In this document: piece after piece, positions 15,645 through 62,356 of the stretch | How positions within the stretch are numbered: position 1 is the stretch's first letter | How the letters are laid out: every line of letters starts with the position of its first letter | From: Nitrospirota bacterium | GTDB taxonomy: Bacteria; Nitrospirota; Thermodesulfovibrionia; Thermodesulfovibrionales; Magnetobacteriaceae | Direction of reading: 5' to 3' | DNA length: 64,000 nucleotides | Assembly: GCA_015233895.1 (NCBI GenBank) | Contig: JADFXG010000014.1 | Span: 1-64,000 of the forward strand | Position numbers and translations under genes: made by a program | The notes under the pieces: model-generated | What the model saw: the letters and a program-made list of their open reading frames with translations, nothing else | Databases searched by the model: none | Told to the model about the DNA's origin: nothing

Positions 15645-18092
15645 ATGGATAAAAATGAACTATTAAGAATAATCAATAAAGCGGATAAAAATAAAGTTAC
15701 AGCCTTAAACTTATCAGGCAAAGGACTAACAGCCCTACCTTCTGAGATTGGAAATCTTAAGAATTTAAAAGAGCTTTGGATTTCTAACAACCAGCTAACA
15801 ACACTGCCACATGAGATAGGAAAACTTACTAACCTAACAGAACTTTATATTGGCACTAACCAACTAAAGAGCCTCCCACCTGAGATCGGAAAACTCAGTA
15901 ACTTAAAAATTCTTTGGTGTGGCACTAACCAACTAAAAATTCTCCCACCTGAGATTGGAAAACTCAGTAACTTAATGATTCTTTTAATTGACACTAACCA
16001 ACTAACAGCCCTGCCACATGAGATTGGAAATCTTACTAATTTGCAACAGCTTCATATTTATAACAACCAACTGACAGCCCTGCCACATGAGATTGGAAAT
16101 CTTAAAAAACTAAAAGAGTTTACAGTCTCAGGCAACCCGCTTAAAACCCCGGCGATAGAAATTGCCTCTAAGGGCATTGATGCCATAAGAGAATATTTTG
16201 AATTGCTAAACAAGAAACCTGATGCTGTAACAAAATTATACGAGGCTAAACTCATAATCGTTGGCCAGGGCGGAGTAGGAAAAACGAGTATTTTAAGAAG
16301 ATTAACCGATAACACTTTCTCAGAATCTCAGGAGTCAACAGAAGGAATAGAGATCAAAAAACTACCGATTAAAACTAAAGACAGCAATGAAATCACACTG
16401 AATGTGTGGGATTTTGGCGGGCAGGAGATATATCACGCAACGCATCAGTTTTTCTTAACTAAGCGCTCCGTCTATATGCTTGTCTGGGATGCAAGACAAG
16501 AGGCGGTCTTTGGCAGAATCGAGGATTGGCTCAATGTGATTAAAGCCTTTGGCGAGGACAGCCCGATAATTTTAGTTTTGAATAAATGTGATACGTATAT
16601 TGAAGAGATTAACTCCAAAGATTTGAAAGCAAAATTTCCCAATATAATGGGTTTTCTTAAGGTAAGCTCCAAAACTCCTGGAAAGGGACCCGATTCTTTT
16701 AGTAAATTAAAGAAGGTAATAGGCGATGTGGCGGCTAAGCTCCCTCTTATGGGTACAGAGTGGGTAAATTCATGGATTGAAGTAAGAAAGACTTTAGAAG
16801 ACGATAAACGGAATTATATAGATTATCCGGAATTTAAAACCCTTTGCAGAGAACACGATATAACTGAAAGTGAGGAAAGCCTCCTTGCAGAGTATCTTCA
16901 CGATTTGGGAGTATTTCTGCATTTTAAAGACGACGTCATTTTACGTAACACGTTGATAATAAAACCCGCCTGGGGAACTCATGCGGTCTATAAGGTAGTA
17001 GCGTCAAAAAAACTAAAGCAAGGTGTTTTATGTGAAGACTACCTGCCGGAAATCTGGAAAGATACTGATGGTTATCCCAATTCTCAATACCCTACGCTTT
17101 TGAGGCTTATGAGAAAATTTGAACTCTCCTTTGCTATGGGAGACACAAATAATTACATAATCCCAAGCGTATTGCCCAGAGAGCCGATAGACTTTGATGA
17201 TGATTTCACTACCTGTACGCATGTATTGTACCAATATGAATTCTTACCCAAAAACGTGATGCCGCATTTTATAGTCCGGGTGCATGATTTAATTAAAAGA
17301 GATAATGATAAATACCTATGTTGGAGAGACGGAGTTATTTTAAGCAAAGAAACAGAGACTGAAAAAACCTCCGCGTATATCAAAGCGGATGAGTCTAAAA
17401 GATTAATAGACATAACGGTAACAGGCGAAAGCAAACGGGAGTTTCTCTGGCTTATAAGACAGCATTTCGATACAATTAACGAAAAGATAAAGCAACTGAA
17501 AGTGGATTTATTAATACCGTGTTCGTGTACGGAAAATTGCCCGTCAGTATATAAATATGAAAATGTTCGTAAGTTTGAAAGAGAAGGAAAGAACGAATTT
17601 TTATGTATGGAATCAACAAAGGCGGTGTCTGTCAAAGAACTTCTTAACGGAATTGAAACTACGGAAAGGAGAAAAAAGGAGGAGGATTCAAAAAGCATGG
17701 GAGACAGTAAATTTGATGTGTTTATCAGCCACAGTTCAAATGATGCTGAATTTATTATGAATAATGTACTACCAAAGTTTAAAAGCAGAAGAATATCCTA
17801 TTGGATTGACCATGAGCAGATTAGCTTTGGCGATGGAATTGTTCACAAAATAGAAGACGGACTACAAGCCAGCAAGCACGTCATGGTCTGCTTGAGTCCC
17901 GCACTTGGGAAATCAAACTGGTGCAGAGCCGAATATGAGTCTGTCTTACACAAAGTAATTACCAAAAAAACAGACAAAAAAGTTATACCCCTGAAACTAA
18001 GACTTGAGGATGGGGATGATTATGATACTCCTATTTTAATCACAGGCCTCAAAATGGCAGAGTTTTATAAAACGAAATCGTTTGAAAGTTAA
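15645..18092 (+). CDS. LRR-Roc-COR-TIR protein (bacterial Roco with C-terminal TIR)
   Basis: The 815-residue protein has four parts. Residues about 17-165 are seven or so leucine-rich repeats of the LPxEIGxLxNL type. From about 200 a Roc GTPase has P-loop GQGGVGKTS (about 207-215), switch motif WDFGGQE and the base motif LNKCD. About 340-640 is a COR-like region. Residues about 688-815 form a TIR domain starting [12 protein letters not shown], with the SNWCRAEYE segment holding the putative NADase glutamate (about 763). A GGGGAGG site precedes the ATG. The layout matches NLR-like immune proteins: LRR sensing, GTP-driven switching and a TIR that may deplete NAD. The flanks hold IS and phage relics, consistent with a mobile defence locus. 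Confidence 0.88.
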
Positions 18093-18130: not shown

Positions 18131-18246
18131 TCAGAAGCATAACGATACGGCAAGGAGAAGGCGACGTAGGCGTACTTTTACAGGGGATTCCCCTTTAAGG
18201 GAGACGTCGAGGAGCTTTTGACGATGCCAACAAAGTTAGGCGATAG
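18131..18246 (+). repeat. ~110-bp dispersed repeat, copy 1
   Basis: This stretch, from TCAGAAGCATAACGA to TTAGGCGATAGAA, aligns over its whole length with the reverse complement of 57801-57909. Shared blocks include GGCAAGGAGAA, GGGATTCCCCTTT, GAGGAGCTTTT and CCAAC-AAGTTAG. The centre is an inverted repeat around GGGATTCCCC. It ends where the lysozyme remnant begins. Confidence 0.75.
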
Positions 18247-18247
18247 A

Positions 18248-18546
18248 ATGCAACCTGGTATAACTGAAGAGACCGCTATGTTTTTGCTTGAAAACGACAT
18301 TGAGGACTGCGAAAGACAATTGAAAAATAATCTGGGTTTTATGATGCGCTTTCGGATGTAAGAAAAATCGTCCTTATTGATATGTGTTTAATATGGGAAT
18401 AGCAGCGCTGCTTAGCTTCACACAAACATTAAAGGATATTGAGGCCGGGAACTTTAAGAGCGCCTCACGCTAAATGATGCAAAGTCAGTGGGCAAGACAA
18501 GTGCATGGCCGTGCGTTAGAACTTTGCGCAATGATGAGAGACAATA
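18248..18546 (+). pseudogene. Decayed phage-type lysozyme (GH24-like) gene fragment
   Basis: Three frames read in turn give a recognisable GH24/endolysin C-terminal half. First comes QPGITEETAMFLLENDIEDC, then FYDALSDVRKIVLIDMC, then FNMGIAALLSFTQTLKDIEA and, after a TAA, MMQSQWARQVHGRALELCAM. Two single-base shifts (near 18335 and in the TGTTTAATATGG stretch near 18390) and one in-frame stop separate them. The catalytic N-terminal part is missing; the dispersed repeat lies in its place. It reaches the murB stop codon at 18550. This accounts for most of the 450 bp between the Roco-TIR gene and murB. Confidence 0.7.
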
Positions 18547-54104: not shown

Positions 54105-56165
54105 ATGTACGTTGTATCCATTGCTGTTTTGATAATTGGCGGGTTAATCGCTGCAATATCCGGCAAGGCTGCCGGGGTTGCCTCTGTTTTGGCTGTTGCT
54201 GTTGCCCTCGCTTGTAATTTATTTATCTCAGTTCCTCCGATTTTCTATAACGATGTCCCCTCCTACGTTCTATATTTGCAGTACCCGATGGGTACTGTTA
54301 ATTTTGAGATTGACTCACTGTCTGCCTTTTTTCTTATCACTGCCTCTTTCATCTTCTTTGTTACCTCGATATACTTGTACGGCTGTATGCCTAAAGAAAA
54401 CAGGAAATTCCACTTTGCATTCTTTGATTTTCTCTTTGTCTTAGTTATACTTGTGCTTACTGTAAAAAATTCAATCGGTTTTTTAATAACTCTTGAACTT
54501 GTAACCCTGCTTACCGTATTTTTAATCCTTTATGACCACAAAAGCCAAAGAGTCCAAAAAAGCGCCGTTTACTATCTTATCGCTATGCATGTTGGCACAG
54601 TTTTTCTGATTATCCCAATTATCATTCTTATAAATGCTACTGGAAACATGGACTTCAGCGCATATAAGGATTTGCTTGCATCGGCTTCAGAAATCCAAAC
54701 ACCTCTTCTGTGCCTTTTTTTGCTGGGGTTTATCTTTAAGGCAGGATTCGTTCCATTTCACACTGCTAACACATCAGCCCTCTCACAGGCTCAACCAGCA
54801 ATTTCCGCCATTATATCCGCTGTTGTTATACAAATCCCTATTTACGGCCTACTGCGTATTATTACGCTTACAGATTCCACGCCTCTTTTTATCGCATACA
54901 CGTTTCTTTTATTCTCTGTCATAACCGCTCTCTACGCGGTCACTAACGCACTGACTCAAAAGGATTTAAAACAAATACTTTCATACTCGACTGTAGCAAA
55001 CATCGGCATTACCGGAGTTGGAATATCTGTTGGGCTGCTTGGAAAAGCTTACGGAAAACCCCTGCTGACTCTTCTGGGATTTACTGGCGTACTGTTTCAT
55101 ATTTTTAACAGCGCAGTGTTTATGGCTACCGCGTTTTTTGCCTGTGGCTCTGTGCATTTAAGCACTGGCACCAGTAAGCTGGCTGAGTTAGGCGGGCTCA
55201 TAAAAACCATGCCTGTTACGGCTGTTTGTTTTCTTACCGCTTCTTTGTCAATCTGTGCACTTCCTCCTTTTAACGGTTTTATCAGCGAGTTTTTTATCTA
55301 TCTTAGCCTTGTAACCACCGAGACCTCATCCTCCGGTGCTTTGATAACCTCGCGGGTCATTGCAGCGGCTGCCCTTGCCTCTGTAGGGGCATTGTCACTG
55401 ATAGCTTATGTCAGGGCATTTGGCATTATATTTACCGGAGTTCAGCGTTGCCAGTTTACAGCTAATGAAAACCCTCGTTCCATGCTTATACCAATGGCAC
55501 TTCTGTCAGCCGTTTGTCTTATTGTAGGAATTTTCCCGTTGCCTGTGGCAGCACTCATAAAAACTCCTGCAATGTTGCTTTCAGGGGTTTCTGGTTTTGC
55601 GCTAAATGATGCCCTGATGCCTGCATTTTCCGTTTCAAAAGCATCGTTTATTTTTCTGCTCTTTATCTTTGCGATACTTGGCCTTAAACACATTTTACTA
55701 AAAAAACGTACAACTGTCACGGCAAAAACTTGGAACTGCGGTTATGAAAACGTAAGCAGCCGGATGCAATATACCGCATCCTCACTCACTGCCCCTCTCA
55801 TTAATCTGATACAGCCTATTGTGGCAAAGGGGGAGTCCGCAGAAGGTGTTTTTTCACCGAAAGGCGACGAAATAGATCAGATTGACGTTGAGGATACCGA
55901 TGCCCGCTTAAGCACAATTATCCAGATACCGGGAGTCTCTCAACTTTCAAGAAAGGACTATTTCTTTCCACAAGTGCAGGTTCACCATCAAACAGAACAT
56001 CTTGATTTTGTTGAACACTACGTAGTTGGGAATATTCTTAAAGCCTTTAAACGTTTCTATAATTTATTTGCATGGATACAGACCGGTTATATAGGACACT
56101 ACCTGTTCTATATGCTGATAACTCTGCTTGTGTTTCTCATAATCTCTGTCTGGAGACTGCTGTGA
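54105..56165 (+). CDS. hyfB: Antiporter-like membrane subunit HyfB (NuoL/M family)
   Basis: The 686-residue integral membrane protein has about 16 helices and belongs to the Mrp/NuoL-M-N family of proton-translocating subunits, closest in plan to HyfB/HycC. The core segment is LLGFIFKAGFVPFHTANTSA, keeping the central TM7 lysine (FKAG). The next helix reads SAVVIQIPIYGLLRI, where relatives usually have lysine (MIK), so a proton-channel residue is Gln here. A long amphipathic C-terminal region (about 560-650) precedes the last helix. Its stop overlaps the start of hyfC (CTGTGA). Confidence 0.85.
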   Translation: MYVVSIAVLIIGGLIAAISGKAAGVASVLAVAVALACNLFISVPPIFYNDVPSYVLYLQYPMGTVNFEIDSLSAFFLITASFIFFVTSIYLYGCMPKENRKFHFAFFDFLFVLVILVLTVKNSIGFLITLELVTLLTVFLILYDHKSQRVQKSAVYYLIAMHVGTVFLIIPIIILINATGNMDFSAYKDLLASASEIQTPLLCLFLLGFIFKAGFVPFHTANTSALSQAQPAISAIISAVVIQIPIYGLLRIITLTDSTPLFIAYTFLLFSVITALYAVTNALTQKDLKQILSYSTVANIGITGVGISVGLLGKAYGKPLLTLLGFTGVLFHIFNSAVFMATAFFACGSVHLSTGTSKLAELGGLIKTMPVTAVCFLTASLSICALPPFNGFISEFFIYLSLVTTETSSSGALITSRVIAAAALASVGALSLIAYVRAFGIIFTGVQRCQFTANENPRSMLIPMALLSAVCLIVGIFPLPVAALIKTPAMLLSGVSGFALNDALMPAFSVSKASFIFLLFIFAILGLKHILLKKRTTVTAKTWNCGYENVSSRMQYTASSLTAPLINLIQPIVAKGESAEGVFSPKGDEIDQIDVEDTDARLSTIIQIPGVSQLSRKDYFFPQVQVHHQTEHLDFVEHYVVGNILKAFKRFYNLFAWIQTGYIGHYLFYMLITLLVFLIISVWRLL

Positions 56166-57145
56166 CAGCAGAGACGCTGTTTCGCTATTTGCTGATGCTT
56201 GTACTGGCAGTGTTTATGGCTGGCATGATTGTAAAGGTGAAAGCAATGTGGGCTGGCAGATACGGAGCACCTTTATTTCAACCGTTTTTTGAAATTATCC
56301 GGCTTTTTAGAAAATCACAGGTTATTAGTGAAACATCCTCGATGGTCTCCACTTTAGGGCCAACACTTGCACTTGCCTCAGTGTTAGCTGCCGCTATGGT
56401 TGTTCCTGTGGGCGGCGGTGCTGCTATTATGAGTTTTAAAGGTGATTTCATATTCTTTGTTTATGCTTTGGCTGCTGCAAGGTTCTTTAGTGTTATCATT
56501 GCACTTGATACCGGAGGCAGTATAGGCGGCATGGGAGCAAGCAGAGTGGTCACTTTTTCAGCATTAATTGAACCGGCTTTTTTTATAATTATCGCCTCAT
56601 TAGCACAACTTACAGGTAAAAACTCTTTTACTGACATTTATGCCGTAATTCTCATGCCTGACACCGCTAACGGTATGGCCACTGCCCTTACCGGCACTTT
56701 TGTCAATTTGGCACAGGCATGGTCACACTCAGAGCTGCTTATTCCTGCCGTTTGCGGCAATATTGTGCTTATGATGTTTATCCTTACTGAGGCAGGCCGT
56801 CTGCCTGTTTGCGACCCTGCAACACTCAGTGAACCGGCTATGATTCACGGAGCTTTGACTTTTAACGTTAGCGGCCCGGATTTAGCCATTATGAATCTTA
56901 CATCCATTATTAAAATATCCTTGCTAAGCACTCTCATAACCGGTATTATCGTACCTGCCTGGGTCTCTCCGGTTACGTCTCTGTTTCTGTACATATTTCT
57001 GATGTCAGGTATTGCTGTCACTATTGGACTTATTGAGTCATTGTTTGCCCGTCTTCGGCTTTCATACGTACCTCAGTTTTTGTTTGGCGCAACAGGGATT
57101 GCTATCATTGTGCTGGCTGTGTTGGTGCTTGGAGTAAAAAAATGA
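56162..57145 (+). CDS. hyfC: Membrane subunit HyfC (NuoH family)
   Basis: The NuoH-type subunit anchors the soluble arm and forms the entrance of the proton path. The 327-residue protein starts at a GTG overlapping the hyfB stop; a longer open frame inside hyfB is spurious. Visible are WAGRYGAPLFQPFFEIIRLF and FILTEAGRLPVCDPATLSEP followed by MIHGAL. In HycD-type proteins this last stretch is typically DDPATHLELTMIHEAM, so a histidine and a glutamate are missing. About eight helices. It overlaps hyfE by 4 bp. Confidence 0.85.
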   Translation: MTAETLFRYLLMLVLAVFMAGMIVKVKAMWAGRYGAPLFQPFFEIIRLFRKSQVISETSSMVSTLGPTLALASVLAAAMVVPVGGGAAIMSFKGDFIFFVYALAAARFFSVIIALDTGGSIGGMGASRVVTFSALIEPAFFIIIASLAQLTGKNSFTDIYAVILMPDTANGMATALTGTFVNLAQAWSHSELLIPAVCGNIVLMMFILTEAGRLPVCDPATLSEPAMIHGALTFNVSGPDLAIMNLTSIIKISLLSTLITGIIVPAWVSPVTSLFLYIFLMSGIAVTIGLIESLFARLRLSYVPQFLFGATGIAIIVLAVLVLGVKK

Positions 57146-57780
57146 TTGACCAAATAGCAGTTATACTTTTTGGAGCAACAATACTTTACATAGCAACAAC
57201 AAGCCGTATTTCAGCCTTTGTCATAATACTATCAGTTCAGGGCATTATGCTTTTTTTGGCATCCATTTCACAGACGGAAACTCTAAAACTCGCCCACGCC
57301 CTGTTTATTACGTTTGAAACTGTTGTGGTAAAGGCCTTTGTACTACCCCTGTTTATTCACCATATAATTAAAAAAATGGGCATAAAGCGAGAGACAGACC
57401 CATCTCTTGGCAGCTTTACGATGTTGGTGCTTTCTACAATCATAATGTCGCTGTCATTTGTTTTGTCATCAATGCTGAAACATGCCGGGAGCAATATCAA
57501 CGTGCTTAATTTCAGCGTTTCACTCTCTGCGGTGATAATTGGTATGCTTATAATAACAACTCGAAAGAAGATTATAAGCCACGTGATGGGGTTTCTGGTG
57601 CTTGAAAACGGTGCTTTTATGATGTCACTGTCTTTAGCCCCCGGGGTGCCGATAATTGTTGAGGCAGGCGTGCTGTTTGATGTGCTGATAGGGGTGTTTC
57701 TTATGGGGATTTTCGTAAATAACATGAAAGCCGCTTTTGAAGACTCAGATGTAAGTAAGCTAACGAGGCTGTCTGATTAG
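57142..57780 (+). CDS. hyfE: Membrane subunit HyfE (hydrogenase-4 component E)
   Basis: The 212-residue protein has six or so helices and a NuoK-like core (FSVSLSAVIIGMLIITTRKK, GFLVLENGAFMMSLSL), with HALFITFETVVVKAFVLPLF before it. This matches the HyfE fold, a NuoK relative with extra helices. It overlaps hyfC by 4 bp and closes the first half of the operon. About 840 bp separate it from the next complex gene. Confidence 0.83.
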   Translation: MIDQIAVILFGATILYIATTSRISAFVIILSVQGIMLFLASISQTETLKLAHALFITFETVVVKAFVLPLFIHHIIKKMGIKRETDPSLGSFTMLVLSTIIMSLSFVLSSMLKHAGSNINVLNFSVSLSAVIIGMLIITTRKKIISHVMGFLVLENGAFMMSLSLAPGVPIIVEAGVLFDVLIGVFLMGIFVNNMKAAFEDSDVSKLTRLSD

Positions 57781-57800
57781 TTATTCGGATTCTAATTCAA

Positions 57801-57909
57801 TCGTCTAACTTCGTTGGCGTGCGTTAAAAGCTCCTCAACGTCTCCCCAAAGGGGAATCCCATGTAAGGGGAGACGTCGCTTTCTCCTTGCCGCCTCGTTA
57901 TACTTCTGA
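57801..57909 (-). repeat. ~110-bp dispersed repeat, copy 2 (inverted relative to copy 1)
   Basis: The reverse complement aligns end to end with 18131-18246. This copy forms a clean hairpin, ACGTCTCCCC pairing with GGGGAGACGT around an 18-22-base loop. It sits just after hyfE and may act as its terminator. Confidence 0.75.
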
Positions 57910-58000
57910 ATTAAAATCAGAATAAACTGATATTTGGATGGTTGTGAATTTCATACCGATGCGTGGTTGTTGCGTGTTGTATAAATCACGGCTTAAGCAT

Positions 58001-58038
58001 AGGCAGCACTCTTTTTTTCAGCTAAAATAGTGCTGCCT
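58001..58038 (-). terminator. Hairpin after the small minus-strand gene
   Basis: AGGCAGCACT and AGTGCTGCCT form a perfect 10-bp stem with an 18-base loop, starting 9 bp beyond the small gene's stop. There is no T-run after it, so termination is a guess. Confidence 0.45.
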
Positions 58039-58046
58039 GCGCTGAG

Positions 58047-58316
58047 CTATCCGTTTGCGGCGGCTTTTTCTGCAGCCTCTTTTGCGAGCAGTCTTTTAGC
58101 CTGCTGATCACCGCTCCTTGCTTCTTTGGCGGTCTGATTAGGAGTCTCCGTAGCTTCCTGTAATGCTGCAGCTGCCGGACTGATACTGACAGTGGCGCTG
58201 GGAGTCGTCTTGGGCTTAGCCTGAGCAGCTTCTGCAGCGGCAGAGTGCGGCTTAGATTGTGCTTCTTGTTTATTTACTTGCGATGATTGGGTTGCATTCG
58301 ATACATTATTAATCAT
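58047..58316 (-). CDS. Small Ala/Gln-rich protein of unknown function
   Basis: The 89-residue protein begins MINNVSNATQSSQVNKQEAQ. The start is set by an AAGGAGG site 7 bp upstream, which excludes a longer frame. It has no signal peptide or membrane segment and is rich in Ala, Gln, Lys and Ser, so it is probably disordered; the C-terminal third (QQAKRLLAKEAAEKAAANG) may be helical. It lies antisense between the two halves of the hydrogenase-like operon. I do not recognise a family. The good ribosome site and a hairpin after the stop support a real gene. Confidence 0.65.
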   Translation of the reverse strand: MINNVSNATQSSQVNKQEAQSKPHSAAAEAAQAKPKTTPSATVSISPAAAALQEATETPNQTAKEARSGDQQAKRLLAKEAAEKAAANG

Positions 58317-58404
58317 TTTGAGCCTCCTTGCTTTGATTGTTACTTTATTATCGGAATAAAACTTCAAAATCTTTAGAGACATTTTATTATCCCATGAATA
58401 TTGT

Positions 58405-58434
58405 TTGCCGTCGAATGGCATAGACGTGTATAAT
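58405..58434 (+). promoter_or_regulatory. Promoter for the second half of the hydrogenase-like operon
   Basis: TTGCCG and a perfect TATAAT are separated by 18 bp, about 190 bp before hyfF. The 303 bp between the small gene's start and hyfF hold this promoter and a 34-codon open frame. Confidence 0.5.
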
Positions 58435-58534
58435 AGTTATTTGGTTTGATAGAATACAAAGAACAGCTTTAGGTGGAACATTAATCGTTAAAAATGTTAA
58501 GGTCTAAAAATGTTGGCATCTATAAAGTAAAAAA

Positions 58535-58639
58535 ATGGAAAAAACAGAGTGCTTAAAAGTTGCAGTAGCGGCAGAGGCCATTTTTACATCCGGCAAACTG
58601 TCTGTTAATAAAAATACATGTGAGCTGTTACGTGTATAA
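58535..58639 (+). CDS. Possible 34-residue leader ORF overlapping hyfF
   Basis: An ATG opens a frame, MEKTECLKVAVAAEAIFTSG and on to a stop at 58637-58639, which lies 20 bp inside hyfF in another frame. No clear ribosome site is seen. It could be a coupling leader, a relic, or chance. Confidence 0.25.
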   Translation: MEKTECLKVAVAAEAIFTSGKLSVNKNTCELLRV

Positions 58640-60089
58640 AGATATTTTTATAATCGCTCTACCTATGGCAGCCGCCTTACTCTGTATCGTGTTAAGGTCG
58701 TCAAAAGCGGATAGATTCGCTCTCATTGTGGTTTCACTGATTAACCTTGCAGTATCACTAACGCTTCCTTATGACGGCGTTTACAGAAACGGTGAACTTC
58801 TTGGCACTGACACACTGGGATTTATCTTTCTTTTCATTGTAAACATCTCTTTTTTGGGCTCGGCAGTTTACAGCAACCTTTACCTGAAGGAGATGGATGA
58901 GGCACAACTCTATGACCACTGGTATGCGCCGGCTATGATTTTTTTACTGTCTGTTGTGACAGGGGCAGTGCTAAGCAGAAATCTTGCCTTGATGTGGTTG
59001 TTTGTTGGGGCAGTGCCACTTGCTGCCGCCACACTTATTTGGCATCACAGGGATAAGGAATCACTTGAGGCAGCATGGAAACACCTATTTATTTGTTCGG
59101 TTGGTATAGTGCTTTCATTTATCGGAGTGCTCTCTATGATTGAAGCCTCCGACTATGTGCTGGGGCATAACCTTAGCATTGATACCCTTGCAAATTACTC
59201 ATCTGTAATATCGCCGCTGTGGGGCGGGATGGCTTTTACATTTGCTCTTGTTGGTTACGGCGCACTGATGGGACTATCTCCCATGCACACATGGCTTCCC
59301 GATGCCCACTCTAAAGCTCCCTCTCCTGCCTCAGCGCTGTTTTCAGGCACTCTGCAAGCCTCTGCATTTCTGGCTATTTTAAGATACTATCAAATACTTT
59401 CAGCCACATTGATGATTCCCTTTATCCGGGGACTGCTGCTTACTTTGGGGCTTATATCTTTGCTCACAGGGGCCGTGTTTATCCCTCGTGTTGATAATTT
59501 CAGAAGAAAGCTTGCTTATTCCACTGTAGCCCATATGGGAGTGCTTGCAACTGCTCTGGGACTTGGCGGCTTTGCTATATATGCCGCCATTCTTCATACC
59601 CTTTGCCACTCCCTGCTAAAGCACACATTGTTTTTAACCAGCGGAAATTTCCTTTACACTTACGGCACAATTAAAACCAGCGGCATCTGCCGTGGAATGA
59701 GGAGAATCCCTCAGAGTTCTGTTACATTGGTTGCTGCTGCTTTATTTATAACAGGAATTCCAACTTCGGGAATTTTTGTTAGTGAGCTTATTATAATTAA
59801 ACAAATGGTGACAGATAGCCGATGGATAACACTTGCCGTATTTACAGTGCTATCGGCAACTGCTGCATATGGCTTAATGAAATCAGTGTTTCAAATGGTT
59901 TTGTCGAAAAGGCCGTCAGATTCAACCGCCTCAGTTTGTGACGAAAATGCGGAGGCAGTTAAAGAGCCTGTGTTGTCACTTCTGCCTCAATGGGTATTTC
60001 TTTTGATTATACTAATTCTCGGAATCAGTATTCCTTTTGAGTTAAACTGGCTTCTTCACGGCGCTGCTTACATCCTGGGAGGTTACTAA
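58620..60089 (+). CDS. hyfF: Antiporter-like membrane subunit HyfF (NuoM/N family)
   Basis: The 489-residue protein has about 14 helices and the family core GLSPMHTWLPDAHSKAPSPA followed by SALFSGTLQASAFLAILRYY. In relatives the stretch before it is GYGTKxGL with the central TM7 lysine; here it reads GYGALMGL, so that lysine is Leu. The GTG start at 58620 is uncertain because no ribosome site is visible; a GTG four codons on is also possible. It is 6 bp from hyfG, whose large-subunit product would contact this arm indirectly. Confidence 0.83.
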   Translation: MSCYVYKDIFIIALPMAAALLCIVLRSSKADRFALIVVSLINLAVSLTLPYDGVYRNGELLGTDTLGFIFLFIVNISFLGSAVYSNLYLKEMDEAQLYDHWYAPAMIFLLSVVTGAVLSRNLALMWLFVGAVPLAAATLIWHHRDKESLEAAWKHLFICSVGIVLSFIGVLSMIEASDYVLGHNLSIDTLANYSSVISPLWGGMAFTFALVGYGALMGLSPMHTWLPDAHSKAPSPASALFSGTLQASAFLAILRYYQILSATLMIPFIRGLLLTLGLISLLTGAVFIPRVDNFRRKLAYSTVAHMGVLATALGLGGFAIYAAILHTLCHSLLKHTLFLTSGNFLYTYGTIKTSGICRGMRRIPQSSVTLVAAALFITGIPTSGIFVSELIIIKQMVTDSRWITLAVFTVLSATAAYGLMKSVFQMVLSKRPSDSTASVCDENAEAVKEPVLSLLPQWVFLLIILILGISIPFELNWLLHGAAYILGGY

Positions 60090-60095
60090 ATTATA

Positions 60096-61592
60096 GTGAA
60101 CAGCAAATGGCTGACGATAAATAACTCTGTGGCAATCCCGCGGCGGCAAATCCCTGTGCTTCATCTAAGTGACTTGATGGAGGGTATTGCAGCTCAAATT
60201 CAACAGGGTTTAAGGGTTATTCAGTTTTTTGGTTACGAGGCCGCTAACGGTAACATATCGGTTGTTGCGGTTTTATCCGATGACATTTCTAACCACCTGA
60301 CGGTTGCTACGGCACAGACTGAGCGGGGGGGCAGATACGATTCCATATCAAACACAGTTCTGACAATGCAGTTGTTTGAACGAAACCTATATGAACAGTT
60401 CGGCGTGGTCCCTGAGGGGCATCCGTGGTTAAAACCCGTAAGGTACGGCTATGGCGCAACAGTGCGCAGCGAAATAGCCGATTATCCGTTTTATAAGTCA
60501 ACCGGAGGAGAGGTTCATGAAACAGCCCTTGGACCGGTTCATGGCGGGATAACGGAGTCCGGGCATTTCAGGTTTTTATGTCATGGTGAGGATGTGTTTC
60601 ATTTAGAAATACAGGCAGGGTATCAGCACAGAGGGGTAGAGGCACTCTTTACAACTGGAAATCCAATGAATAAATCAGCGCTTGCTGAGTCAATAGCCGG
60701 GGACACGGTGATAGGGCATGTGTGGGCACATGCGCTTGCGATAGAGGCAATGTCGGGAGTCAGGGTTTCAGCAAGGGCGGAGATAATACGGGCAATAGCT
60801 CTTGAACTTGAGCGGATAGCGATGCACTTATCGGGACTGAGCGGTATGTCGCTTGATATAGGGTTTTTACCCGGTGCTTCAACCTACGGGCGTTTAAGAA
60901 ACACCATAATGGATACGATGCTGATGATTTCCGGCTGCCGCTTTGGGCGGGGGCTGATTCGTCCTGGCGGCGTGTTAAGCGACATAGAGGTAAAGAGCAG
61001 GGAGCATGTGTTAAGAATATTTGATGGTGTTAGCAGAGATCTGGAAATAATAAATGTATATTTTTTTAATGACCCCGGTGTGCAGTCTCTGATTGAGTAC
61101 ATGGGGACAGTGAGCACGGAGGCAGCGTGGCGGGCTGGCATTATAGGAATAGCTGCGAAATCCTCAGGGCTGCCTATTGATGCCCGTGCGGATCAGCCGT
61201 ATGGAGTCTATGTAAAAGACAGTATAGAGCCGGTGTTGTTAAAGGCTGGGGATGTGGCAGCAAGGGCACGCATCAGGGTGCTTGAGATAAATCAATCCAT
61301 CGAACTTCTGCGCAGATGGCTGAATCTTGGCATAATGACAGGCGGCATAAAAGAAGAGGCGAGGCTGATGAAAGCGGACTCCTTTGTGGTTACGACAGTG
61401 GAGGGATGGCGCGGAGCAGTCACACATACGGCAATGACCGGGCGTAACAGTGAGCTTGAGCACTACAGGGTGACAGACCCCTCGTTTCATAACTGGATAG
61501 CTCTCACACTTGCCATGCGGGGAAATGGGATTTCTGACTTTCCGCTTTGTAACAGGAGTTTTGACTTATCATTCAGCGCCCATGATTTATAG
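60096..61592 (+). CDS. hyfG: Cysteine-less hydrogenase-like large subunit (HyfG/NuoCD type)
   Basis: The 498-residue protein fuses a NuoC-like N-terminal domain (QLFERNLYEQFGVVPEGHPW) to a NuoD/HycE-like domain (GYQHRGVEALFT, ELERIAMHLSGL, VEGWRGAVTHTAMTG). In group 4 hydrogenases the active site is held by E-R-V-C-G-I-C-G and D-P-C-x-x-C. Here the aligned stretches read ESIAGDTVIGH and SFDLSFSAHDL, so all four nickel-iron cysteines are absent. It cannot be a [NiFe] hydrogenase and fits an Ehr-type subunit. It starts at a GTG and is 27 bp from the small-subunit gene. Confidence 0.88.
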   Translation: MNSKWLTINNSVAIPRRQIPVLHLSDLMEGIAAQIQQGLRVIQFFGYEAANGNISVVAVLSDDISNHLTVATAQTERGGRYDSISNTVLTMQLFERNLYEQFGVVPEGHPWLKPVRYGYGATVRSEIADYPFYKSTGGEVHETALGPVHGGITESGHFRFLCHGEDVFHLEIQAGYQHRGVEALFTTGNPMNKSALAESIAGDTVIGHVWAHALAIEAMSGVRVSARAEIIRAIALELERIAMHLSGLSGMSLDIGFLPGASTYGRLRNTIMDTMLMISGCRFGRGLIRPGGVLSDIEVKSREHVLRIFDGVSRDLEIINVYFFNDPGVQSLIEYMGTVSTEAAWRAGIIGIAAKSSGLPIDARADQPYGVYVKDSIEPVLLKAGDVAARARIRVLEINQSIELLRRWLNLGIMTGGIKEEARLMKADSFVVTTVEGWRGAVTHTAMTGRNSELEHYRVTDPSFHNWIALTLAMRGNGISDFPLCNRSFDLSFSAHDL

Positions 61593-61618: not shown

Positions 61619-62356
61619 ATGTTTAGTGCAATAAAGACAAGACTAAATCAGCGGTTTCAGAGCATAAAAGATATGGCGTTGCCGCCGGTTAATTTCAGAG
61701 GGCTGCCAAAAATATCGGACGGTACGTGCGCTAATGCCTGCTACAGATGTATGGAGGCGTGTCCTGTGTCGGCAATAACGTATAATCCCATAACAATAGA
61801 CTTGTCAAAGTGCATACTGTGTCCGGAGTGTTCAATGGTTTGTGCAGATGGCATCATACGTTTTACAAATCAAACAGAATTGGCTTCAACCGATTTAAAA
61901 GACCTGGTGATAAGCTCTGTACACAGAGAGCCTGAGATAGTACCGGAGAAACGCATAGTAAAATTATTCAATAAATCGTTTAAACTACGCTCAGTATCAG
62001 CGGGCGGATGTAACGGCTGTGAGCTTGAGTTAAATGCGCTTTCTAACGTAAATTTTGACATCGGGCGGTTTGGGATAGAATTTGTAACATCTCCGCTTCA
62101 CGCTGATGCTCTTATCTTAACCGGACCGCTTACAAAAAACATGGCACACGCAGTAGAAGAGACCTATCGCTCAATCCCTGAGCCAAAAGTAGTGATTCTT
62201 GCCGGCTCTTGCGCCTTAAGCGGCGGAATATTCGCTAACTCAAAAGCTATTGACAGATCTTTCTTAAATCAAATTAACCCACATCTCTATATTGCAGGCT
62301 GCCCCCCCCATCCATTGACTCTTGTTAATGCGTTGTTGAGGTTTACAGGCAGGTAG
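61619..62356 (+). CDS. Iron-sulfur subunit: ferredoxin domain fused to NuoB/HycG-like small subunit
   Basis: The 245-residue protein has an N-terminal 2x[4Fe-4S] ferredoxin domain (CANACYRCMEACPVSAI and CILCPECSMVC; HycF/NuoI-like) and a C-terminal NuoB/HycG domain. The latter keeps the N2 cluster ligands: GGCNGCELELNA, AGSCALSGGIF and AGCPPHP. Electron transfer along three clusters up to the large subunit is therefore intact although the large subunit lacks nickel ligands. A fusion of these two functions is less common than separate genes. It ends the operon; the next gene is on the other strand. Confidence 0.88.
   Translation: MFSAIKTRLNQRFQSIKDMALPPVNFRGLPKISDGTCANACYRCMEACPVSAITYNPITIDLSKCILCPECSMVCADGIIRFTNQTELASTDLKDLVISSVHREPEIVPEKRIVKLFNKSFKLRSVSAGGCNGCELELNALSNVNFDIGRFGIEFVTSPLHADALILTGPLTKNMAHAVEETYRSIPEPKVVILAGSCALSGGIFANSKAIDRSFLNQINPHLYIAGCPPHPLTLVNALLRFTGR

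What the first reader, a model, noticed from the sequence alone, without database searches (positions are those of the whole stretch)
60096..61592. Hydrogenase-like large subunit without any nickel-iron cysteine
Seen: the two places that hold the four Ni-Fe ligands in HycE-type proteins read ESIAGDTVIGH and SFDLSFSAHDL, so the cysteines are Ala, Thr, Ser and Ala, while the small subunit keeps its iron-sulfur ligands. Known: Ehr-type complexes related to group 4 hydrogenases lack these cysteines and their reaction is not settled. Inference: this complex couples electrons from ferredoxin to an unknown acceptor, perhaps quinone.
Basis: partly seen in the sequence, partly recalled or inferred. Interest (0 to 1): 0.72.

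Follow-up and report, generated by a model that had tools for sequence, protein, structure and literature searches.

The report
Hydrogenase-like complex with broken ion pump
This is a known kind of membrane complex that looks like a hydrogen-making enzyme but has lost its nickel site; what is new is that in this bacterial genus it has also lost much of its ion-pumping machinery while keeping its electron wire, so it may show what is left when the two halves of such a machine come apart.

Summary
The 498-residue large subunit at 60096-61592 has Ala201, Thr204, Ser492 and Ala495 where E. coli HycE has its four Ni-Fe cysteines. It ends at that motif, without the C-terminal extension of HycE and HyfG. 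The small subunit keeps 8 ferredoxin-type and 4 proximal-cluster cysteines. This is not a sequencing error: about 100 homologues lack all four together, form one clade apart from HycE/HyfG and NuoD, and share their own signature (GD[TS]..., NKSFNLSYCGHDL at the C-terminus). It is an Ehr-type complex, a kind already reported in Nitrospira with unknown function. The genome holds a second, better conserved copy.

The quinone idea has little support: NuoD His38/Tyr87 are absent, and 16 of 29 related genomes show neither menaquinone marker. And in this genus the membrane arm has lost 12 of 48 otherwise conserved ionisable residues, including the TMH5 Glu/TMH7 Lys pair of the HyfF-like subunit; same-family kin lost 2 of 48. 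Other relatives show the reverse: at least four lineages lost proximal-cluster cysteines but kept the pump residues. Best reading: a ferredoxin-fed, non-hydrogenase complex with reduced or lost pumping and an unknown acceptor.

The parts
54105..56165 (+). HyfB-like antiporter subunit (686 aa). Keeps TMH5 Glu131 and TMH7 Lys212; has lost HycC E294, H332, K336 equivalents (A298, S336, M340) and H222/K239 (L226, Q243)
   Evidence: PF00361, best NCBIfam 'hydrogenase 4 subunit B' below its cut-off; residue mapping
56072..57145 (+). HyfC/NuoH-like membrane anchor (357 aa). Keeps E167, E240, E254; has lost HycD E130 and E206 equivalents (V159, G260), the His that Ehr has at HycD E201 (L252), D247 and D265
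   Evidence: PF00146; mapping
57142..57780 (+). HyfE-like subunit (212 aa)
   Evidence: best NCBIfam 'hydrogenase 4 membrane subunit' below its cut-off
57781..58619 (.). 839-bp stretch splitting the operon; holds a minus-strand ORF 58047-58421 without Pfam match. Same-family genomes G148 and G172 have E and F next to each other; in G096 the two halves lie on different contigs
58620..60089 (+). HyfF-like antiporter subunit (489 aa) that has lost the TMH5 Glu (HyfF E143 -> G130) and TMH7 Lys (K232 -> L216) and E304; keeps H326, H330, K334
   Evidence: PF00361; alignment of about 50 homologues
60096..61592 (+). Large subunit (fused NuoC+NuoD / HycE-like, 498 aa) without Ni-Fe cysteines; keeps H149, E154, H244, E397, R439, D490
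   Evidence: PF00329 + PF00346; 7z0s_E Z 46, 485 aligned, rmsd 2.6; motif mapping
61619..62356 (+). Small subunit (245 aa): N-terminal 2[4Fe-4S] ferredoxin domain fused to a NuoB/HycG-like domain, all 12 cluster Cys kept
   Evidence: PF01058; ferredoxin-type matches to Fer4 models below their cut-offs; alignment

Best explanation
The six genes encode an Ehr-type complex: a complex I/group 4 hydrogenase relative without a Ni-Fe site. Shown from sequence: no Ni-Fe ligands, complete ligand sets for three [4Fe-4S] clusters, a conserved non-metal cavity signature, and loss of many membrane-arm proton residues in this genus. Inferred: reduced ferredoxin gives electrons to the fused ferredoxin domain, they pass to the proximal cluster and leave to an unidentified acceptor in the cavity of the large subunit, where E154, H149 and the H244/E397/R439/D490 set could supply protons. 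Because the HyfF-like channel lacks its Glu/Lys pair, the HyfB-like channel its central His/Lys, and the NuoH-like subunit several E-channel and coupling-loop residues, transmembrane pumping is probably reduced or lost. The complex would then act mainly as an electron outlet for ferredoxin; the cell's second Ehr complex, whose F and B subunits keep these residues, may still pump.
For: Cys loss and own signature in the whole clade. All 12 SSU Cys kept in the window and in G079 and G096, and in G236 and G242 where the SSU gene has moved elsewhere. Membrane-arm ionisable losses: window 12/48, G079 12/48, G236 10/34, G096 3/11 and 7/37, G242 5/16, against 2/48 in same-family G148 and G172 and 0-2/48 in nearly all others. 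Purifying selection on all six genes (dN/dS 0.08-0.20), somewhat weaker for B (0.20) and H (0.17). Own Ehr-B keeps the F Glu/Lys and B His/Lys residues. HycE/HycC/HycD residue roles from PMC9474812.
Against: E. coli HycC mutants E135A, H222A, K239A, H328A and K336A still made H2, and native HycC has Leu at the TMH7 Lys position (PMC9474812), so such losses show only that those channels are altered. TMH12 Glu of B, K334 of F, and E167 and E240 of H remain, so residual coupling is possible. No acceptor is identified. Ferredoxin as donor is inferred from domain content only. No expression or biochemical data.
Confidence: 0.5

Rival explanations
1. A coupled ferredoxin:menaquinone oxidoreductase: the cavity binds quinone in another way than NuoD does, and pumping continues through the residues that remain.
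For: The genome has two PF02621 (MqnA/D) hits. The window lineage has Asp at the canopy position (D490 = HycE D529), which complex I needs; most other Ehr have Asn there. The cavity fold matches NuoD (Z about 43).
Against: NuoD His38/Tyr87 equivalents are absent. 16 of 29 genomes with this subtype show neither MenB over cut-off nor MqnA/D, though UbiA-family proteins are common and MAGs are incomplete. Pump residues are lost.
Confidence: 0.22
2. A sulfane-sulfur (polysulfide) reductase working like Pyrococcus MBS.
For: MBS is the best-studied non-hydrogenase relative that takes electrons from ferredoxin; Nitrospirota often live by sulfur (general knowledge).
Against: MBS depends on a proximal cluster held by only three Cys, in a shortened motif (PMC7684303); here the CxxC spacing is that of hydrogenases and all four Cys are present.
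Confidence: 0.08
3. A complex in decay: early pseudogenisation in this genus, without a function under selection.
For: Operon split by 839 bp here and dispersed in sister genera, cavity motif drift (Y493F, G495A, K487R), lost pump residues, dN/dS up to 0.20.
Against: All reading frames intact in several genomes; dN/dS 0.08-0.12 for E, F, L, S; every Fe-S Cys kept.
Confidence: 0.12
4. Mainly a non-redox ion-transport or regulatory device, as may hold for relatives that lost the proximal cluster.
For: At least four lineages lost proximal-cluster Cys with the pump kept; 23 related operons carry a PTS EIIA + HTH regulator.
Against: The window lineage shows the opposite: wire kept, pump residues lost; no EIIA gene near it.
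Confidence: 0.06

Closest known systems
Ehr (Ech / energy-converting hydrogenase-related) complexes, e.g. of Nitrospira and Geobacter sulfurreducens GSU0739-45
   Same: Group 4-like subunits with Mrp-type antiporter subunits, no Ni-Fe Cys; literature calls the function unknown (PMC12342949, PMC10284858, PMC7894505)
   Different: Window complex has lost 12 of 48 conserved membrane-arm ionisable residues and has a ferredoxin domain fused to the small subunit (absent in Nitrospirota-wide Ehr-B).
Formate hydrogenlyase / hydrogenase 3 and 4 (HycE, HyfG) of E. coli
   Same: Best fold and sequence match; equivalents of subunits B, C, E, F, G, I
   Different: All four Ni-Fe Cys and the C-terminal extension missing; no formate module in the operon
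Respiratory complex I (NuoB/C/D/H/L/M/N)
   Same: Fold of the large subunit, no Ni-Fe site
   Different: No NADH module; no NuoD His38/Tyr87; no tandem CC at the proximal cluster
Pyrococcus MBS (sulfane sulfur reductase)
   Same: Ferredoxin-fed relative without a full Ni-Fe site; quinone residues absent
   Different: MBS has a three-Cys proximal cluster and keeps two of the four Ni-Fe Cys (PMC7684303); here four and none

Membership tests
Ehr complexes | group 4-like large subunit without the Ni-Fe Cys | tested here: met
   A201/T204/S492/A495; whole clade alike
Ehr complexes | falls outside true hydrogenases and complex I in a tree | tested here: met
   100-row clade, SH-aLRT 100, apart from HycE/HyfG and NuoD (quick tree)
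Ehr complexes | groups with a named, published EhrL | tested here: inconclusive
Ehr complexes | Mrp-type antiporter and NuoH-like membrane subunits present | tested here: met
   PF00361 twice, PF00146
Ehr complexes | ion pumping by the membrane arm (suspected for Ehr in the literature, not a proven criterion); here judged by conserved ionisable residues | tested here: inconclusive
   12/48 conserved ionisable residues lost, others kept
Ehr complexes | reaction catalysed | not testable with these tools
   unknown for the family
Group 4 [NiFe] hydrogenase | four Ni-Fe Cys | tested here: not met
Group 4 [NiFe] hydrogenase | C-terminal extension removed in maturation | tested here: not met
   no residues past the motif, against 32 in HycE/HyfG
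Complex I | NuoD His38 and Tyr87 quinone residues | tested here: not met
   E154-bearing loop and invariant G202 instead
MBS | proximal cluster with three Cys in a shortened motif | tested here: not met
   four Cys, CxxC spacing

The most novel reading that the evidence does not exclude
The Ehr family has come apart in opposite directions in different lineages: a wire without a pump in this Nitrospirota genus and its relative g5 (all Fe-S Cys kept, membrane proton residues lost), and a pump without a wire in Opitutaceae, a Planctomycetota MAG, a Bacteroidota MAG and Allomeiothermus silvanus (proximal-cluster Cys lost, membrane residues kept). These would be natural decoupled versions of the complex I machine.
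Probability: 0.45. Interest if true: 0.75.

Novelty: new variant of a known kind. Interest (0 to 1): 0.52.

Why it matters
How electron transfer drives ion pumping in complex I is still debated. Natural relatives that kept only one of the two halves would show which residues serve which half, and would be test objects that need no mutagenesis. The window complex also shares its genome with an Ehr paralogue that looks better conserved, a built-in control.

Tried and rejected
Sequencing or assembly error: rejected (several independent genomes agree). Displaced CxxC pair elsewhere in the protein: none. Small-subunit loss in sister genus g5: at first it seemed lost because it is not next to the large subunit; a genome search found it elsewhere with all Cys, so that idea was dropped. 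Formate dehydrogenase or NADH module as partner: none next to the operon in the window, and no such gene recurred near the related operons. A statistical test of exclusion between wire loss and pump loss has no power: only 4 independent pairs, trait b never varied. dN/dS of Ehr-B subunits B and H gave nonsense values and was not used. UbiA search was unspecific. VIA/Foldseek list complex I chains just below HycE, so fold alone does not choose between hydrogenase-like and quinone-like function.

Full report
OBSERVATION. The ORF at 60096-61592 (+) encodes 498 residues. Pfam finds Complex1_30kDa and Complex1_49kDa; the best solved relative is E. coli HycE, 7z0s_E. The protein ends at this motif; HycE and HyfG run on for 32 residues, so the usual C-terminal extension is absent too. 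The small subunit (61619-62356) has 8 ferredoxin-type and 4 proximal-cluster Cys.

IT IS A CONSERVED STATE, NOT AN ACCIDENT. 229 of 296 Nitrospirota genomes have a homologue at E<=1e-20 (this count includes NuoD-type hits), and 61 further loci came mostly from other phyla. All large subunits near the query lack the four Cys and share another signature: GP[VI]HAGIIEPGHFRF, GD[TS]...[HY], and a C-terminal NKSFNLSY-x-G-x-DL. Invariant residues over 57 rows include E154, G202, D203, H208, H244, E397, R439, S492 and D497. A tree puts 100 such rows in one clade apart from HycE/HyfG and NuoD (SH-aLRT 100). Within it lie two Ehr types present in this genome: Ehr-A (the window; ferredoxin domain fused to the small subunit; otherwise found in Planctomycetota, Verrucomicrobiota, Riflebacteria, Elusimicrobia and others) and Ehr-B (own contig C18, Nitrospirota-wide, small subunit without that domain; L002/L110). 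The literature describes such Ehr complexes in about half of the Nitrospirales genomes analysed, without Ni-Fe ligands and of unknown function (PMC12342949, PMC10284858). So the kind is known.

WHAT THE CAVITY KEEPS. HycE E193, the proposed proton donor on the beta1-beta2 loop, is E154; HycE H188, H284, E437 and R478 are H149, H244, E397 and R439 (roles from PMC9474812). The canopy Asp529, needed in hydrogenases and complex I, is Asn in 47 of 51 other Ehr-A rows and in own Ehr-B, but Asp (D490) in the window's family. NuoD His38 and Tyr87 are absent; the Tyr87 position is an invariant Gly. The AlphaFold2 model (pLDDT 87.9, pTM 0.90) matches HycE best (Z 46, 485 residues, rmsd 2.6) and complex I 49-kDa subunits next (Z about 43).

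QUINONE. The window genome has two MqnA/D hits. Of 29 other genomes with Ehr-A, 16 have neither MenB over its cut-off nor any MqnA/D hit: Elusimicrobia, Omnitrophota, most Riflebacteria, Raymondbacteria, Spirochaetes, a Kiritimatiellae MAG. The genomes are mostly MAGs and UbiA-family proteins are common (strongest of these in the Elusimicrobia), so absence is not proven, but quinone is unlikely to be the general acceptor.

THE MEMBRANE ARM IN THIS GENUS. An alignment of about 50 homologues each gave 48 ionisable positions conserved in at least 93% of the rows outside the window's lineage in subunits B, F, H and E. The window and G079 have lost 12 of 48; G236 10 of 34; G242 5 of 16; G096 3 of 11 and 7 of 37. 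Same-family G148 and G172 lost 2 of 48, and nearly all others 0-2, apart from the Variovorax plasmid copies with 3 and 5. Mapped on known residues: F lost the TMH5 Glu and TMH7 Lys (HyfF E143, K232); B lost HycC E294, H332 and K336 and the H222/K239 positions; H lost HycD E130 and E206 and the Ehr-specific His at E201. Own Ehr-B keeps the listed F and B residues. All six Ehr-A genes stay under purifying selection between window and G079 (dN/dS L 0.11, S 0.12, F 0.10, E 0.08, H 0.17, B 0.20). In this lineage the operon is also coming apart: an 839-bp stretch separates E from F here, in G096 B-H-E lie on another contig than F-L-S, and in G236 and G242 the small subunit is on another contig, with all Cys.

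THE REVERSE CASE ELSEWHERE. In nine loci the small subunit has lost two to four of the four proximal-cluster Cys (L036 three, L054 two): six Verrucomicrobiota (five of them Opitutaceae; L046, L051, L054, L057, L065, L142), a Planctomycetota MAG (L036), a Bacteroidota MAG (L049) and plasmid pMESIL01 of the isolate Allomeiothermus silvanus DSM 9946 (L096). The tree needs at least four changes. Where measured, their membrane arms lost only 0-2 ionisable residues, and their large-subunit C-terminal signature is mostly kept. Electrons could hardly reach the cavity in these.

MECHANISM. Shown: no Ni-Fe ligands, complete Fe-S ligands, altered pump residues, purifying selection. Inferred: ferredoxin as donor, an unknown acceptor in the cavity, reduced or lost pumping. 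A caveat: E. coli HycC itself has Leu at the TMH7 Lys position, and several HycC channel mutants still make H2 (PMC9474812), so residue loss speaks to pumping, not to redox turnover.

LIMITS. Most comparisons are MAGs; trees are quick ones; no named EhrL could be aligned; 'pump lost' and 'wire lost' are sequence inferences.

Noticed in passing
L046, L051, L054, L057, L065, L142, L036, L049, L096 (small-subunit genes): Ehr-A small subunits that lost two to four of the proximal [4Fe-4S] cluster Cys in at least four lineages while the large-subunit signature and pump residues stay.
   Followed up: partly
23 Ehr-A loci, e.g. L034:3282-3932, L038:3101-3811, L046: A PTS EIIA-2 domain with an N-terminal HTH_17 is encoded in or next to Ehr-A operons of many phyla; a link of this complex to PTS-type regulation. 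Absent near the window operon.
   Followed up: partly
L064:9306-12282: A second Ehr-A copy in a Verrucomicrobia MAG whose HyfF-like subunit also lost TMH5 Glu (G) and has Arg for TMH7 Lys, with a drifting large-subunit motif (GPVQ, CCRSFNLSCCGHDL): perhaps an independent case of pump loss.
   Followed up: no
L095 (Variovorax sp. PBL-E5 plasmid 3): Ehr-A and Ehr-B operons lie side by side on one plasmid.
   Followed up: no
W01/NC_014213.1 about 21608 and 247261: Allomeiothermus silvanus plasmid pMESIL01 carries two copies of the cluster-less Ehr small subunit with equal match scores, and an Ehr large subunit next to each.
   Followed up: no
window 57795-57909 and 18131-18249: A repeat of about 120 bp (82% identical, opposite orientation) in the stretch that splits the operon; possibly a small dispersed element.
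   Followed up: no
window 58047-58421 (-): Small Ala/Thr/Pro-rich ORF without Pfam match between subunits E and F of the operon.
   Followed up: partly
window 15645-18092 (+): 815-residue protein that reads as leucine-rich repeats, a Roc GTPase-like domain and a C-terminal TIR-like domain (from sequence only).
   Followed up: no
large-subunit position 490 across the family: The canopy Asp that is conserved in hydrogenases and complex I is Asn in most Ehr-A and in own Ehr-B, but Asp in the window's family.
   Followed up: partly
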